This document shows, in pieces, positions 4,181 to 28,636 of a stretch of 64,000 nt of DNA; position 1 is the first letter of the stretch; each line of letters starts with the position of its first letter. Made by a program: the position numbers and the translations under genes. The notes below the pieces were generated by a model. That model made no database searches. It was given only the letters and a program-made list of their open reading frames with translations, and was not told the DNA's origin. The DNA is from Methanotorris igneus Kol 5 (GTDB taxonomy: Archaea; AGJL01; Methanococci; Methanococcales; Methanococcaceae): assembly GCF_000214415.1 (NCBI RefSeq), contig NC_015562.1:496001-560000 (forward strand), read 5' to 3'.

Positions 4181-4238
4181 ATGGCGCAGGGGAAGGGATT
4201 TGAACCCTTGCGGGGCAGAGCCCCATGGGATTTCAAGT
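4181..4238 (-). repeat. attL: 58-bp direct repeat, 3' fragment of tRNA-Ser
   Basis: These 58 bases are identical to 28546-28603. They contain the CCA end, acceptor 3' strand, T arm and variable arm, up to the anticodon stem of tRNA-Ser. The 5' half of the tRNA is missing, so this copy is not a functional gene but the chromosomal remnant left by integration. Confidence 0.95.
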
Positions 4239-20285: not shown

Positions 20286-20336
20286 TGTTCGAACATATTT
20301 TTACGAATAGACATATAATTATAATCATATATAAAA
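20286..20336 (-). promoter_or_regulatory. Promoter plus operator of the minus-strand operon, copy of the 24.9 kb site
   Basis: The minus strand has a TATA box TTTTATATATG (20336-20326). About 29 bases after the TATA start comes a 22-bp sequence (20307-20286) identical to 24946-24967 at the plus-strand replication operon. The region between the TATA box and the 22-mer also matches at 18 of 24 positions. The shared core contains TTCG and TATGTTCGAACA half-sites, placed at the predicted start of transcription as expected for a repressor operator. Confidence 0.72.
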
Positions 20337-20511
20337 TCTTCTCTTTAAATTTCTTAATATGTGAGATTAGAAAAGTTAATAACAAAAGGTAAAAAGAAAA
20401 TTTTTTATTCATTAAAATAAATTATTCAAAATAAATTAACTGATGTCTATTTTGGGAATGTTTTCTTAATACCTTACATTGTTTTTATTGTTATTAGGAG
20501 ATGTGATAATC

Positions 20512-23038: not shown

Positions 23039-23386
23039 AAAAAAGACAATAAGGTTTGTTTTTGTGAATATTCAAAACTTTAATTTGCCTCTAACGCTTT
23101 TTTACCACCTAATTTAAAATACCACACATACAAAGCCAATGATAGTAAAACTAATTAACCCCAAGAAGTCAGCCCCATAATCACAAACAAAGTTTGATTA
23201 TCCATAACTACCAACACTCTCTTTTGTTGTTATATCTTATGTCAGTTGTTGGTTTTATTAGTTTTGGTGTGGCAGTGTTCTACGGACCAGAAAAGAAAAA
23301 AATAAAAAACTCAATGAATTAGCTTTATTTTTATGAGATTTAGAATATTTGGTTTTAATTTGTTGTAATCTCAAAAGTTTAGTAAT

Positions 23387-23788
23387 GTTCATGAAAGTTC
23401 GTTCGTAGTTCATTTTGTTTTTTAAAAAGAAGCTCAAGTTCACGTTGTTCGCTATTTATATTTATAAAAAAATAAAATCTAAATAAATTTTTAAAACATA
23501 TTAAAATAAAGAATATTTTTTCTCATTGTATAGTATATATATAGAAAATCCATGAACTAATGAACTTGGTCTTTTCTAAGCCAGATTTAATGAACAACCT
23601 AATGAACTTCCATGAACAAGAATTTTATGTTTTCCAATTTATTAGAACTAAAAATTTGCACAAAAACACAACCAAATGGGGATTTTTATTCCGTTTAATT
23701 TTGGTGTTTTGATATTTGATAAAAATCCTTATTTTGCCTTAATATTGTTTGTTCGTCCTTATTTTTAAAAGTTCATTGGTTTGTTCAT
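23387..23788. repeat. Repeat cluster 1: GTTCA/TGAAC iteron-like sites around an AT core
   Basis: This gene-free region (23039-23808) carries many copies of a short motif. In the left part it reads GTTCA or GTTCG (23387, 23397, 23401, 23408, 23437, 23445). After an AT-rich core of about 95 bases it reads ATGAAC (23552, 23560, 23590, 23602, 23612). Then it returns to GTTCG or GTTCA at 23750-23788. The common form is AATGAACTT. Inverted clusters flanking an AT core are typical of archaeal plasmid origins or of a complex operator. GTTCG half-sites also occur in the two shared operators. Confidence 0.6.
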
Positions 23789-23808: not shown

Positions 23809-24072
23809 TTATGGAATAATAGTAGATTCATCATAGATAATATTGTGTATCATAGACAGTTGCTTTTTCTTTAGATTTTTGAAATTATCCTCAATTTCAT
23901 AGAAAATTAATGCTTTTTTTCCTTCATCAGTAATTTTATAATATGATTTTGGTAATTTATATCCTTCTTGTTCTTCCCATTTTTCAACTAATCCTGCCTC
24001 AACAAGTTCATTTAATAATTTACTCAAATTACTTTGGTTAATATTTATTTCTCTTTTTAAATAGGTTTGTTT
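23809..24072 (-). pseudogene. Truncated winged-helix paralogue
   Basis: The open frame reads YLKREININQSNLSKLLNEL and onwards, and aligns along its whole length with the intact winged-helix protein encoded at 24462-24797. Shared features are the LxELVE segment, LPKxYYxxT, GKKAL/GKRVL and the IIYD/IIYG tail. The N-terminal helix and a normal start codon are missing: a stop lies at 24073-24075, and only TTG 24027 could start internally. It is best read as an N-terminally broken duplicate, or a gene using an unusual start. Confidence 0.65.
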
Positions 24073-24108
24073 TTATTGAAATATTAAAAATTTATAGTTT
24101 ATATAGGA

Positions 24109-24455
24109 TTTGCAACAGAATAAAAAGAGATGCAAAGAAAAAAAGCAATTTGCAACGTTTGCAACTCTAATGAGATATAAAATAAAATATATACATAAAA
24201 GAAATAACAAAAAATTATAGAAAGTATATTTTTATTGTATATCTATATATATTATATAATGTTGCAAACGTTGCAAATCCAATAATTTTGTTGCAAACAG
24301 CCAGATTTTGTTGCAAATCTTTTGCATAGATATATACACTTGTATTTTTAAATTTTCTCTCTTTTTCTTCTGTAAATTGTCAAAAACGCAATTTTTGACA
24401 TTTTTTAAATCTCGTCAATTTGGGCTTATTTTTGGATTTACAACAATTTGCAAAG
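24109..24455. repeat. Candidate replication origin: 18-bp inverted repeats flanking an AT-rich core
   Basis: ATTTGCAACGTTTGCAAC at 24148-24165 is the exact reverse complement of 24261-24278. Between them lie 95 bases with only about ten G or C. Further copies of the GTTGCAAA unit occur at 24109-24116, 24290-24298, 24310-24318 and 24445-24455. This is the layout of an archaeal origin: recognition repeats in opposite orientation around an unwinding element. Close by lie two winged-helix genes, the candidate replication ATPase and PCNA. Confidence 0.7.
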
Positions 24456-24461
24456 AGTTTA

Positions 24462-24797
24462 TTAGTAACTACTTGCGATAACTTTATCCCCATAGATAAT
24501 TTTAATTGGAGTATCATCTTCTTTCTTTAAAGCATTACAAAGTTTATATACCATTAAAACTCTTTTTCCAAAATTTGTTAATGAATAGTACGTTTTTGGC
24601 AGTAAAGCGTCAGTCTCCTCTCTTCTTTTGTTAAGTATTTCTGATTCTACAAGTTCATCTAAGATGTTTCCTAATGTTCCCTTATGAATGTTTAAATCTT
24701 TATGAAGTTGCCCAAAATGAACCTCTCCGTGAGTATCTAAATATTGAAGTATCTCCTTTACGTGTTTTTTTGCAAGTAATTTCAATAAATTTTCCAT
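24462..24797 (-). CDS. Winged-helix DNA-binding protein
   Basis: This 111-residue protein is one winged helix (HVKEILQYLDTHGEVHFGQL, LNIHKGTLGNILDELVESEI, then the wing LLPKTYYSLTNFGKRVL) with a short C-terminal tail. It lies next to the repeat clusters and is a good candidate for binding them or for repressing its own promoter. ATG 24797 follows GGGGTGAAAATGT. A truncated paralogue is encoded 390 bases downstream. Confidence 0.85.
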   Translation of the reverse strand: MENLLKLLAKKHVKEILQYLDTHGEVHFGQLHKDLNIHKGTLGNILDELVESEILNKRREETDALLPKTYYSLTNFGKRVLMVYKLCNALKKEDDTPIKIIYGDKVIASSY

Positions 24798-24908
24798 ACA
24801 TTTTCACCCCTAAAGTCTTCCCGTTTGTTGTTATTATTCATATTTTTGTGGTTTATTTTATAAAAGAGTATAAACACTTTTAAATATTCGGAAATATTTT
24901 TATGTTCG

Positions 24909-24969
24909 ACCGAAAAGTATTTATATGGTTGTAATTATAATACTGTTCGTAAAAATATGTTCGAACAGT
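24909..24969 (+). promoter_or_regulatory. Promoter plus palindromic operator of the replication operon
   Basis: A BRE ACCGAAAAG (24909-24917) and TATA box TATTTATAT (24918-24926) lead to an 8-bp inverted repeat, ACTGTTCG (24942-24949) and CGAACAGT (24962-24969), centred close to the expected transcription start. A 22-bp part of it (24946-24967) is identical to 20286-20307 in front of the minus-strand operon. An operator placed over the start site implies repression of the following genes. Confidence 0.75.
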
Positions 24970-24975
24970 GATAGC

Positions 24976-25164
24976 ATGCCAGAAATAAAGAAAAAGAGAT
25001 GGGCTAAGGCGAGGATAATATTTCCAGCAATATATGGTAAAATAAAGGAACAAGGTAATTCTGCAAGATTTTTTCCTTCAATACCTGCTGAATATGTTGG
25101 TAAAAAAGCAGTTTTGGTAATTTTAGAAGAAGATAAAGAATTGGACGGTGGTGGGGATGAATAA
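24976..25164 (+). CDS. DUF2080-like small protein, possible AbrB-fold regulator
   Basis: This 62-residue protein (MPEIKKKRWAKARIIFPAIY) has a C-terminal part, EQGNSARFFPSIPAEYVGKK then AVLVILEE, which resembles the DUF2080 family of small transposon-associated proteins and the swapped-hairpin AbrB fold. It is directly downstream of the palindromic operator and upstream of the wHTH-ATPase, so autoregulation is plausible. ATG 24976 follows GTGATAG. Its stop lies eight bases into the next gene. Confidence 0.7.
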   Translation: MPEIKKKRWAKARIIFPAIYGKIKEQGNSARFFPSIPAEYVGKKAVLVILEEDKELDGGGDE

Positions 25165-26389
25165 CAAAATAAAATTAAATGAAACTGATAAGAAAGTTCT
25201 TGATTTCATTTTAGAAAATGGAGAATCAACCAGACAGGAAATCATAGATGCGTTAGGAGTTAAAAGCGGTTCTTTAACGAACTCAATAAATAAGCTTGAA
25301 AAACTTGGTTACATTAAAACTGAAAAGCAAGGCAATCAAACTGTCATCATTCCAATAACTCCAACCCAGCCATCTATACACAATGACAACACCAATATAA
25401 TCCACTTAGACTTCTCCAAAATCAAATCTCTAACTCATTTGAGAGATATTATAAACTCTCACCTAAGGGCTAATAATTGGAGTATTGGGAATTATGATTT
25501 AGTTATAACTGCTTTAATCATTGCCAAATTCACACAAAATTTAAGGTTGTTAATTTTTGGTTCTCAGGGTATTGGTAAAACTTGCTGTATAAAGGCAGTG
25601 TTTCCAGATAATGATGGATTTATTGAGTATGATTTGCATAGGAAACAACTAAAAGAGGTCGTTAATCTCAGAGAGCATATAAGAATCATCGAACAGCAGT
25701 ATAGGCACACTTGGGGGGCTGAAAATCCAGCAACTTTTGACCAATATACTATAGTTCCATTAAGTAGGATTGCACCATCTGACTTAGTTTTCAGATTCAT
25801 TCCTATTAGGGTCTTACAATATAAATATGTTCCAAATTATAGGCCAGTGGTTTTCGATATTTCTAATTTCAAATTAATTGAGCCACCTTTAGATGTCTAT
25901 GACAAGCTTCACAACATTATGAAACATTTGTTATATTTCAACAATTGTGATGAATCTGCAAAATCAAAGATTAGGGATTTCAAGTACAGGGAAATTCTTT
26001 CTTTATATTCTTTAACGGCTAAGGAGGGGGAGTTTAATTTAAATGCTGAACAATGGAAGATTGAGAGGAAATATGAAAGATATTTGGAAAATCCATTCCG
26101 TTCTGTTAATTTAAGGGTTTTACAAGAAGATGAAGAAATGTGGTTTAGGGCATCTTTGGATATGCAACTTATGAGGAATTCTTATGAGGTTTTAAGGTTT
26201 GCATTTTCCATATCAAGGTCTGAAGATGCGATTGGAGAAACTTACGATTTTATTAAAGAAATTTTGGCAACATGGACAAAAGTTAGGGATGAAAGGCCAA
26301 AAAGAAGAGATAGATCAAAAGTAAAGGTTAGAAGTGAGGCACAATCTTACTATGTTGATAGCCAGGGTGTTGTCCATAATGTTGTCTAA
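25157..26389 (+). CDS. Winged-helix plus P-loop ATPase, candidate replication initiator
   Basis: This 410-residue protein starts with an MarR/wHTH-type domain at 1-70 (DFILENGESTRQEIIDALGV), then a P-loop GSQGIGKT near residue 136 and a possible Walker B strand (RPVVFDISNF) near 230. The C-terminal 150 residues are helical and basic. The combination of DNA-binding wing and ATPase, placed next to the origin-like repeats and before PCNA, suggests a replication initiator or helicase loader of the element. It is not a recognisable MCM or Cdc6. ATG 25157 follows GGTGGTGGGG. Confidence 0.75.
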   Translation: MNNKIKLNETDKKVLDFILENGESTRQEIIDALGVKSGSLTNSINKLEKLGYIKTEKQGNQTVIIPITPTQPSIHNDNTNIIHLDFSKIKSLTHLRDIINSHLRANNWSIGNYDLVITALIIAKFTQNLRLLIFGSQGIGKTCCIKAVFPDNDGFIEYDLHRKQLKEVVNLREHIRIIEQQYRHTWGAENPATFDQYTIVPLSRIAPSDLVFRFIPIRVLQYKYVPNYRPVVFDISNFKLIEPPLDVYDKLHNIMKHLLYFNNCDESAKSKIRDFKYREILSLYSLTAKEGEFNLNAEQWKIERKYERYLENPFRSVNLRVLQEDEEMWFRASLDMQLMRNSYEVLRFAFSISRSEDAIGETYDFIKEILATWTKVRDERPKRRDRSKVKVRSEAQSYYVDSQGVVHNVV

Positions 26390-26418: not shown

Positions 26419-27162
26419 ATGTTCAAAGCAGTAATTAGTGGAGCCAAGAACTTCAAAAAGGTTATTGATGCCGCAAGCAATCTTTTAATTGAGATTTGCT
26501 TTGAAGTTAATGAAGAGAGGGTAAAAGCAATAGCAATGGATCCAGATCATGTTGCCTTAGTAAGTATAGATATACCAAAAGAGGCATTTGATGAATATGA
26601 GGCAGACGTTCATAGTATCGGTGTTGACTTAGAGGCATTTAAAAAGATAATGAACATGGCAAAAGCAAAAGACAAGTTAATTTTAGAGTTGGATGAGGAG
26701 AAAGATAAATTAAATGTGGTATTTAAAGGGGCTATGACGAGAAAATTTGCCCTCGCTTTGTATGATGTTTCATCTTTAGATCTTCAAGTTCCAGATATTG
26801 AGTATCCAAATGAAATCTTAATTAAAGCAGGTCCATTTGTTGATGCGTTAAAGGGTGCGAATTTGGTAAGCGACTGGGCAACTTTAAAAGTTGAGGATGG
26901 TAAGTTTATTGTTTATGCAAAAGGGGATTTAAACGAGAGTGAGACGGTCTTTGAGGAAGATAGTGAGAGTATTATCAGCATGAACATTGGAGAAGATGCA
27001 AAGAGTACTTTCTACCTTGAGTATTTAAGGGATATGACAAAGGCAGCATCATCAGGTGATATTTTAAAAATCTACTTGGGGAGTGACATGCCTGTTAAGG
27101 TTGAGTATGATGTTGCTGGGGCTAATTTGACATTTTTACTCGCTCCGAGAATTGAATCATAA
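26419..27162 (+). CDS. pcn: DNA polymerase sliding clamp (PCNA) carried by the element
   Basis: This 247-residue protein is a full-length archaeal PCNA, with [10 protein letters not shown], the [18 protein letters not shown] segment, the interdomain region near [10 protein letters not shown], and the C-terminal [24 protein letters not shown] trimers encircle DNA and tether polymerases, ligase and nucleases. ATG 26419 follows GAGGGGG. It lies between the candidate initiator and the integrase, so it is part of the element's replication operon. A separate chromosomal PCNA is expected elsewhere but is not in this window. Confidence 0.95.
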
Positions 27163-27203
27163 CCTTACCATTTTGCAGAGTTACAAATGTTTTGGTGGTT
27201 CCA

Positions 27204-27461
27204 ATGGAATCAAAGAGAATGACTTTTTACCTCTGTAAAAATGTTGATAGTAGGAGGTTAAGGTATTATTTACATAAACTTGAAAATTTAAAAGAGTTAG
27301 ACCCTGAGATGTTTAAAAAAGTTATTGAATCTAAGAAGGAGTGTAGAAGAACAATTACTTTAACTGAGGAGGAGATTAAAATTTGTGAAAAATATGGAAG
27401 GGCAACTAATCTGTATTTAAATTATGTTATAATGGTGAGTGAGGATGGGGAGCGAGTTTAA
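27204..27461 (+). CDS. Small protein overlapping the integrase gene, unknown
   Basis: This 85-residue protein (MESKRMTFYLCKNVDSRRLR) is predicted helical with a strand, and is rich in Lys, Arg and Glu. ATG 27204 follows GGTGGTTCCA. It overlaps the integrase start by 17 bases. Its position suggests an accessory role in integration or excision, or a small regulator, but no family is recognised. Confidence 0.72.
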   Translation: MESKRMTFYLCKNVDSRRLRYYLHKLENLKELDPEMFKKVIESKKECRRTITLTEEEIKICEKYGRATNLYLNYVIMVSEDGERV

Positions 27462-28425
27462 TATTAAAAATCTTCTTTTGGTTAAGAGGAAGAGGGATGA
27501 GATTGAAGAGACTGATGAGATGAGGCAGTGGTTGGAGAGGTTTAAGGAGGAGAGGGAGTTTGATGGTATAAAGCCATCAACGATTCATAATGATTTGGCT
27601 CGGTTGAGGGTCTTTTTGGATTTTTGTTATAATCGTTTGGGGAAATCGCCTGATAAGCTTCAAACGCATGATTTTGTTAAGTTCTTTAATTACTTAGAGG
27701 TTGAACGAAAATTGTCTAAGAATACTCAAAAGAGATATTATGACCTTTTAAAAGTGTTTTATAGGGTTTTGAGGATGTATCCTGTTATAAAGGGTTTTGT
27801 TGAAGAGTCGAAGGATAGGAAGAGGTTTTCGAGGATTGAGGTTAAGCATTATGATCCTGTTGATGATAGGATGTTGAATTTGATTTTGGAGAGGATTATT
27901 GGGTCTAATAGTAGGGTGAGTATTAGGAATGCTCTTATTGTTAGAATGCTTTGGGATACGGGTTGTAGGATTTCTGAGATTTTGAATTTGAAGTATAGGG
28001 ATTGTGATTTTGATAGTGGGGTGTTTAGAATTACTGATACTAAGACACATGAGGAGAGGAAGGTTGTTTGTTCGGAGGCTACTTTGGAGGCGTTAAAATG
28101 GTATGTGCAGTTTAATGTTAGGCAGGGTCCTGATGATTATATATTCCAAAAGCAGAATGGGGATAAGTTGAGTAGGGATACGATTACTAAGGTGTTTAAT
28201 AGGGTTGTTAAGGAGCTTAAAAAAGAGGGGAAGATCCCACAAAATAGGAGGATTGTGATTCATTCTCTTAGGCATGGTAGGTGTGTGGATTTGTTGGAAA
28301 AGGGGATTCCTGTCGATATTGTTAAAGAATACCTTGGCCATAAAACTTTAGATACTACATTGTTTTATTCTCATTCAAAAGAGAGGACTGAAAAGCTTTT
28401 GAAGACTATAAAAAAGATTCTTTAA
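27445..28425 (+). CDS. int: Integrase, tyrosine recombinase family
   Basis: This 326-residue protein has an N-terminal SAM-like core-binding domain (about 25-125) and a catalytic domain with the complete active site: Arg175 in DTGCRISEIL, Lys200 in TDTKTHEER, His273 and Arg276 in VIHSLRHGR, His299 in YLGHKTLDTT and Tyr308 in LFYSHS. It is the enzyme expected to recombine the 58-bp tRNA repeat, and its stop is 120 bp from attR. The gene is uninterrupted, unlike SSV-type integrases that are split on integration. Its codons are richer in G and T than its neighbours'. ATG 27445 follows GGTGAGTGAGG. Confidence 0.95.
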   Translation: MGSEFNIKNLLLVKRKRDEIEETDEMRQWLERFKEEREFDGIKPSTIHNDLARLRVFLDFCYNRLGKSPDKLQTHDFVKFFNYLEVERKLSKNTQKRYYDLLKVFYRVLRMYPVIKGFVEESKDRKRFSRIEVKHYDPVDDRMLNLILERIIGSNSRVSIRNALIVRMLWDTGCRISEILNLKYRDCDFDSGVFRITDTKTHEERKVVCSEATLEALKWYVQFNVRQGPDDYIFQKQNGDKLSRDTITKVFNRVVKELKKEGKIPQNRRIVIHSLRHGRCVDLLEKGIPVDIVKEYLGHKTLDTTLFYSHSKERTEKLLKTIKKIL

Positions 28426-28545
28426 AGTCCGATGGTATAATAGTATAAAAGGATTTTAAAATTCCACGGGATTTAGTCCTGTGTAAAAAGTGGGTGTAAA
28501 TATCTATAATTTGTCTAAATTTGGATAAAATTTTGTAAAAAAAGT

Positions 28546-28603
28546 ATGGCGCAGGGGAAGGGATTTGAACCCTTGCGGGGCAGAGCCCCATGGGATTTCA
28601 AGT
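28546..28603 (-). repeat. attR: 58-bp direct repeat inside intact tRNA-Ser
   Basis: Identical to attL at 4181-4238. Here the repeat forms the 3' part of the complete tRNA-Ser gene, from the CCA end through the T arm and variable arm to the anticodon stem. The crossover lies within these 58 bases. Confidence 0.95.
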
Positions 28604-28636
28604 CCCACGCCTTTGTCCAGGCTCGGCCACCCCTGC
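28547..28636 (-). tRNA. trnS: tRNA-Ser(UGA), integration target
   Basis: The minus strand folds as a class II tRNA. The acceptor stem is GCAGGGG with CCCCTGC and discriminator G, and the encoded CCA end is present. The anticodon loop CTTGAAA carries UGA, the long variable arm is GGGGC-TCT-GCCCC, and the T arm AAGGG-TTCAAAT-CCCTT is complete. A TATA-like box lies upstream on the minus strand at 28664-28673. The 3' half of the gene was supplied by the integrated element. Confidence 0.97.

What the first reader, a model, noticed from the sequence alone, without database searches (positions are those of the whole stretch)
24148..24278. Perfect 18-bp inverted repeat around a nearly pure AT core: origin candidate
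The two arms ATTTGCAACGTTTGCAAC are exact reverse complements separated by 95 bases with about ten G/C. Extra single units lie outside. The tandem GTTGCAAA units resemble iterons. The structure sits between two related winged-helix genes, upstream of the wHTH-ATPase and PCNA.
Basis: seen in the sequence. Interest (0 to 1): 0.75.

Follow-up and report, generated by a model that had tools for sequence, protein, structure and literature searches.

The report
Replication origin of archaeal integrated plasmid
The inverted repeat is almost certainly the replication origin of a plasmid integrated in a heat-loving methanogen; the same mirror-image layout recurs in relatives with different repeat sequences and different initiator proteins, which shows how such plasmids may swap their replication systems.

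Summary
The units form a mirror-symmetric array (spacings 20-20-9 | core | 9-20-20). The element is already published as MigKol5_IP1, a pT26-2-family integrated plasmid with no Rep protein recognised. I find the same structure in the FS406-22 element, where its noncoding DNA is as conserved as, or more conserved than, the neighbouring genes. I find the same layout in eight more places, always just downstream of a small wHTH gene. In all but one (a relic) that gene is divergent from an initiator gene with an N-terminal wHTH: MCM helicase in most relatives; here a wHTH-ATPase sits in the MCM position. The iteron sequence differs between lineages and tracks the initiator's own wHTH (AUC 0.94), not the small wHTH (0.54). 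The second wHTH is a truncated relic with its own second iteron/AT core, apparently left by replacement of the replication module. Best reading: a replication origin bound by the wHTH-ATPase; small wHTH and DUF2080 are probably regulators. Binding and initiation are untested. New variant of a known kind.

The parts
24109..24165 (.). left iteron arm: units at 24109, 24129 (GATGCAAA, one mismatch), 24149, 24158; perfect 18-bp arm 24148-24165
24166..24260 (.). AT-rich core, 95 bp, 10 G/C; putative unwinding region
   Evidence: 76% identical to FS406-22 core
24261..24317 (.). right iteron arm: GTTGCAAA at 24261, 24270, 24290, 24310; mirror image of the left arm; 90% identical to FS406-22
24378..24400 (-). 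hairpin TGTCAAAAA-N5-TTTTTGACA between wHTH gene and iterons; a shorter paired version in FS406-22
   Evidence: sequence
24462..24797 (-). small wHTH protein (111 aa, MarR/PadR-like); probable regulator
   Evidence: Pfam MarR 2.6e-06; family
24958..24967 (.). palindrome TGTTCGAACA in the divergent promoter of small wHTH / DUF2080; second copy at 20286-20295
24976..25164 (+). DUF2080 protein (62 aa)
   Evidence: Pfam PF09853 2.1e-23
25157..26389 (+). wHTH-ATPase (410 aa), proposed initiator: N-terminal wHTH plus P-loop domain; sits where MCM sits in relatives
   Evidence: Pfam HTH_24 7.2e-10; relatives; gene order
26419..27162 (+). PCNA sliding clamp
   Evidence: Pfam PCNA_N 1.5e-21, PCNA_C 2.3e-11
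27192..27461 (+). DUF2540 protein
   Evidence: Pfam 2.1e-28
27439..28425 (+). tyrosine integrase of the element
   Evidence: Pfam Phage_integrase 8.4e-34
28545..28602 (-). attR, inside tRNA-Ser(TGA) 28547-28636
   Evidence: boundary equals published 524,602 (PMC6972569)
4181..4238 (-). attL, partial tRNA-Ser copy
   Evidence: boundary equals published 500,181 (PMC6972569)
23809..24063 (-). truncated second small wHTH (N-terminal part missing), relic
   Evidence: full-length relative in G025, 68% identical
23386..23620 (.). second, unrelated iteron array (AGTTCA / TGAACT) around AT core 23452-23551; probable relic of an earlier origin

Best explanation
The structure is the replication origin of the integrated pT26-2-family plasmid MigKol5_IP1. 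The two mirror-image iteron arms are read by the N-terminal winged helix of the neighbouring wHTH-ATPase (25157-26389), which would assemble on both sides, melt the ~95-bp AT core and load or recruit the replicative machinery in two directions. The host MCM is the likely helicase, since no MCM was recognised among the element's proteins examined here and the published survey lists none. The element's own PCNA would help after excision. The small wHTH and DUF2080 proteins probably control the divergent promoter between them. Shown: the anatomy, its conservation, its association with initiator genes, and its sequence tracking the initiator's wHTH. Inferred: binding, melting, bidirectional initiation, and use of the host MCM.
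For: (1) The same array with the same unit recurs in the FS406-22 element downstream of its small wHTH, with a 94-bp core and the same 20-20-9 spacing on the wHTH side. Noncoding identity (right arm 90%, adjacent gap 86%, core 76%, left arm 75%) equals or exceeds that of the wHTH gene (65%) and ATPase gene (74%), and falls to 41% beyond 24065. (2) A different gene lies beyond it in FS406-22 (an Mrr-like nuclease), so it is not tied to the second wHTH. (3) Among 47 testable small-wHTH genes, the six best matches to the wHTH model all have an inverted iteron array downstream (score 7-15); 8 of 47 in all. Upstream scores are 5 or less, apart from the relic wHTH2, whose upstream region is origin 1 itself. 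In 585 control windows about 2% reach 7 outside the known arrays. (4) Gene order is initiator - short gene (DUF2080 in most) <> small wHTH - iterons; the initiator is MCM (Pfam MCM P-loop for two; others by sequence) or the wHTH-ATPase. (5) In G007 and G031 the array lies between convergent genes, so it cannot be a promoter operator there. (6) Pairs of loci sharing an iteron unit are recognised by initiator-wHTH identity with AUC 0.94, by small-wHTH identity with AUC 0.54. (7) Published work lists this element with one predicted ori and no recognised Rep (PMC6972569).
Against: No binding, melting or initiation data. GC skew of the integrated copy follows gene direction and does not point to the site. 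The wHTH-ATPase has no recognisable initiator or helicase family, and its predicted structure is poor outside the wHTH (mean pLDDT 48). Only two elements share the TTTGCAAC unit, so the specificity argument rests on few independent events; some different-unit pairs reach initiator-wHTH identity 0.42-0.49, above the 0.41 of G031 with its same-unit loci. The free plasmid pMEFER01 has repeats upstream of its MCM but a less regular array and no small wHTH. The published ori location is in a supplement I could not read.
Confidence: 0.82

Rival explanations
1. Origin as above, but the repeats are read by the small wHTH protein (24462-24797), which recruits the ATPase.
For: The small wHTH gene always lies immediately next to the array.
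Against: Small-wHTH similarity does not predict the unit (AUC 0.54): G011 vs G007/G024/G035 are 62-64% identical with different units; G031 is 25-29% identical to those with the same unit; igneus wHTH2 and G025 share the recognition helix NQSNLSKLLNELV but have different units. pMEFER01 has MCM and repeats but no small wHTH.
Confidence: 0.25
2. The repeats are operators: the small wHTH or another regulator binds them to control transcription.
For: MarR/PadR-like wHTH genes on both sides; transcription regulators often bind inverted repeats (general knowledge).
Against: The array lies downstream of the small wHTH gene; the gene beyond differs between elements and is a broken remnant here; in G007 and G031 the array lies between convergent genes. 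A separate palindromic operator candidate (TGTTCGAACA) sits in the divergent promoter.
Confidence: 0.08
3. A partition site (centromere) bound by a wHTH adaptor, as AspA does on pNOB8.
For: The initiator wHTH profile has weak sequence similarity to AspA (E about 0.005), no stronger than to many other wHTH regulators; iteron centromeres exist (general knowledge).
Against: No ParA-like gene was recognised among the proteins tested; the gene in the ATPase position is an MCM helicase in most relatives.
Confidence: 0.06
4. Terminal inverted repeats of a small non-autonomous transposon.
For: Perfect inverted repeat around an AT-rich core.
Against: Array of eight spaced units rather than termini; only one copy in the genome; conserved in place in a second element together with its surroundings.
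Confidence: 0.01

Closest known systems
pT26-2 plasmid family (MigKol5_IP1, MspFS406-22_IP1; Badel et al. 2019, PMC6972569)
   Same: This is that element: boundaries 500,181-524,602 correspond to window 4181-28602, target tRNA-Ser, PCNA noted.
   Different: The paper reports no Rep for it and no conserved ori consensus or location across the family; here an initiator candidate and a shared layout with changing units are identified.
SaPI and SCC replication modules (Rep, Cch2)
   Same: Initiator ATPase next to an iteron origin it recognises; the cited paper describes SaPI Rep as appearing to bind as two hexamers (PMC7581432).
   Different: SaPI Rep and Cch2 read DNA with a C-terminal domain; here the candidate reader is an N-terminal wHTH. 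Bacterial, and the ATPase is not recognisably related.
SV40 large T antigen / papillomavirus E1 origins
   Same: The initiator recognises its origin with an N-terminal double-stranded-DNA-binding domain (PMC7581432); two-sided site arrangement is comparable (own knowledge).
   Different: No sequence relationship found; helicase activity of the wHTH-ATPase unknown.
Archaeal Orc1/Cdc6 origins
   Same: Inverted repeats flanking an AT-rich region (own knowledge).
   Different: The initiator candidate is not matched as Orc1/Cdc6 by Pfam or NCBIfam.
MCM-encoding Methanococcales elements
   Same: Same gene order and mirror-symmetric iterons.
   Different: MCM helicase in place of the wHTH-ATPase; other unit (TTCAC type); spacing 24-60-8 instead of 20-20-9; core less AT-rich.

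Membership tests
Iteron-type replication origin | several short repeats in register beside an AT-rich region | tested here: met
Iteron-type replication origin | initiator gene adjacent with a DNA-binding domain | tested here: met
   wHTH plus P-loop protein at 25157-26389; MCM in the same position in relatives
Iteron-type replication origin | initiator binds the repeats and replication starts there | not testable with these tools
   needs gel shift, autonomous replication and marker-frequency assays
pT26-2 plasmid family | element boundaries and alignment with another listed member | tested here: met
   att repeats coincide with published boundaries; several blocks align with the FS406-22 element
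pT26-2 plasmid family | seven core genes | not tested
   taken from PMC6972569 Table 3, not re-derived here
MCM replicon | MCM P-loop domain in the initiator | tested here: not met
   no MCM match for the wHTH-ATPase; Pfam MCM matches in G007 and G024
Orc1/Cdc6-ORB origin | Orc1/Cdc6 initiator beside the origin | tested here: not met
   wHTH-ATPase has no such Pfam or NCBIfam match
Orc1/Cdc6-ORB origin | ORB motif | not tested
   motif not searched for

The most novel reading that the evidence does not exclude
Methanococcales plasmids share a swappable replication cassette: mirror-image iterons around a ~90-110 bp core behind a small wHTH gene, read by the initiator's own N-terminal wHTH, so that unit sequence and initiator change together; in one lineage an unrecognised wHTH-ATPase family has replaced MCM as initiator, and M. 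igneus preserves the scar of such a replacement (old origin and part of the old wHTH).
Probability: 0.55. Interest if true: 0.7.

Novelty: new variant of a known kind. Interest (0 to 1): 0.55.

Why it matters
No conserved origin had been found in this well-studied archaeal plasmid family, and several members were described as lacking a replication protein. A recognisable layout plus a candidate initiator makes replication of these plasmids directly testable, gives a rule for finding their origins, could yield shuttle vectors for hyperthermophilic methanogens, and gives a concrete case of replication-module replacement caught in the sequence.

Tried and rejected
GC skew of the integrated element: follows gene orientation, not informative. 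Searches for the ATPase in plasmid, phage and viral collections: none; only four genomes of the order carry it. Possible second contig of G012 with TTTGCAACGCTTGCAA: apparently unrelated DNA. Structure prediction of the ATPase: too poor to search with. The idea that the small wHTH reads the iterons: rejected as first choice. A clean separation of same-unit and different-unit pairs by initiator identity did not survive adding G025, so only the AUC is claimed. Most M. maripaludis-type small-wHTH genes have no clear array downstream.

Full report
Observation. The finding is exact. Arms 24148-24165 and 24261-24278 are perfect 18-bp reverse complements 95 bp apart, and the core has 10 G/C. The 8-bp units make a mirror array: 24109, 24129 (one mismatch), 24149, 24158 | 24261, 24270, 24290, 24310, spacings 20-20-9 | 103 | 9-20-20. 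In 300 dinucleotide shuffles of the element the best inverted repeat was 16 bp, and no other structure in the 64-kb window passes the same strict scan.

What carries it. The window lies in a 1,854,197-bp genome. A partial tRNA-Ser copy at 4181-4238 and tRNA-Ser at 28547-28636 bound a 24.4-kb element with a tyrosine integrase. These limits equal those published for MigKol5_IP1 of Methanotorris igneus Kol5, 500,181-524,602, a member of the pT26-2 plasmid family (PMC6972569). That paper gives it one predicted origin and no Rep protein, and reports no conserved origin sequence in the family.

Conservation. In the FS406-22 element (G008) the same array with the same unit follows the small wHTH gene, with a 94-bp core. 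A continuous block, window 24071-26384, aligns at 76%. Within it the right arm is 90%, the gap to the wHTH gene 86%, core 76%, left arm 75%, against 65% for the wHTH gene and 74% for the ATPase gene; identity falls to 41% beyond 24065. Noncoding DNA at least as conserved as neighbouring genes argues for function. What lies beyond it in FS406-22 is an Mrr-like nuclease gene, so the array is not an attachment of the second wHTH gene.

Recurrence. I searched the order for the small wHTH and scored inverted 7-mers in the 800 bp downstream of each of 47 genes. The six best members of the family by model score all have an array: FS406-22 15, igneus 14, G007 12, G024 12, G035 9, G011 7; also G005 9 and the igneus second copy 8. 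Upstream scores are 5 or less, apart from igneus wHTH2, whose upstream region is origin 1 itself. In 585 control windows about 2% reach 7 outside known arrays. G031 and G025, not in that test, also have arrays. In all loci but the relic the order is initiator gene - short gene (DUF2080-like in most) <> small wHTH - array. The initiator is MCM in G007, G024, G035, G031, G005 and G025 (Pfam for two of them, the rest by reading the sequence) and the wHTH-ATPase in igneus, FS406-22 and G011. The ATPase thus occupies the MCM position. In G007 and G031 the array lies between convergent genes, where it could not serve as a promoter operator.

Who reads the repeats. Units differ: TTTGCAAC (igneus, FS406-22), TCATACCG (G011), TTCAC type (G007, G024, G035, G031), CGGTTTAGA (G005), TTATCATACTTTTAAG (G025), AGTTCAT (igneus second copy). 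Identity of the initiator N-terminal wHTH predicts shared units with AUC 0.94; identity of the small wHTH gives 0.54. Telling contrasts: G011 and the G007 group have 62-64% identical small wHTHs but different units and different initiators; G031 has a small wHTH only 25-29% like that group, yet the same units; igneus wHTH2 and G025 share a recognition helix but not a unit. I therefore assign the iterons to the initiator's own wHTH, as an inference from few events; the domain boundaries were set by hand and the loci are not phylogenetically independent.

The second wHTH and second core. The left wHTH lacks its N-terminal part. Its start coincides with the end of the FS406-22 homology block (24071). 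Behind it lies a second iteron/AT core with another unit (23386-23620). The simplest history is that an incoming cassette (24071-26389) replaced an older replication module and left the old origin and part of the old wHTH behind. Whether the second origin still works is unknown.

Mechanism. Shown: anatomy, conservation, association, co-variation. Inferred: wHTH-ATPase molecules bind both mirror arms, the AT core melts, and forks leave both ways, probably with host MCM, helped by the element's PCNA. The small wHTH and DUF2080 probably regulate the divergent promoter that carries TGTTCGAACA. The ATPase family is unrecognised by Pfam and NCBIfam, and its predicted structure is reliable only in the wHTH.

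Verdict. A replication origin of a known plasmid family, with a newly recognised layout and initiator candidate: a new variant of a known kind. Confidence that it is the origin 0.82; that the initiator's wHTH reads the repeats about 0.65.

Noticed in passing
20286-20341 and 24912-24967: 56-nt inverted copies (82%) containing TGTTCGAACA, one upstream of the gene at 20479 and one in the wHTH/DUF2080 promoter; related copies in the FS406-22 element. Probably a shared operator.
   Followed up: partly
24404-24440; L020 11816-11852; L022 14583-14620; 23298-23339: A box like AAAATAAGCC-N-ATTGAGTTT near the edge of origins with different iterons (31 nt, 90% between igneus second origin and G011). Meaning unknown.
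   Followed up: partly
L075 4300-7186: The FS406-22 element region holds a second replicon candidate: a 781-aa ATPase with no Pfam match next to TGTCATTG iterons around an AT-rich core.
   Followed up: no
L021 306-1514: G012 initiator joins an igneus-like ATPase domain (67%) to a G011-like N-terminal wHTH: a natural domain swap; its origin lies beyond the contig end.
   Followed up: partly
23075-23215: Stretch in noncoding DNA 84% identical to FS406-22 L020 17751-17893, possibly a decayed gene.
   Followed up: no
L145 and L147 (small plasmids of G007 and G015): Free plasmids also show strong inverted-repeat arrays, candidate origins.
   Followed up: no
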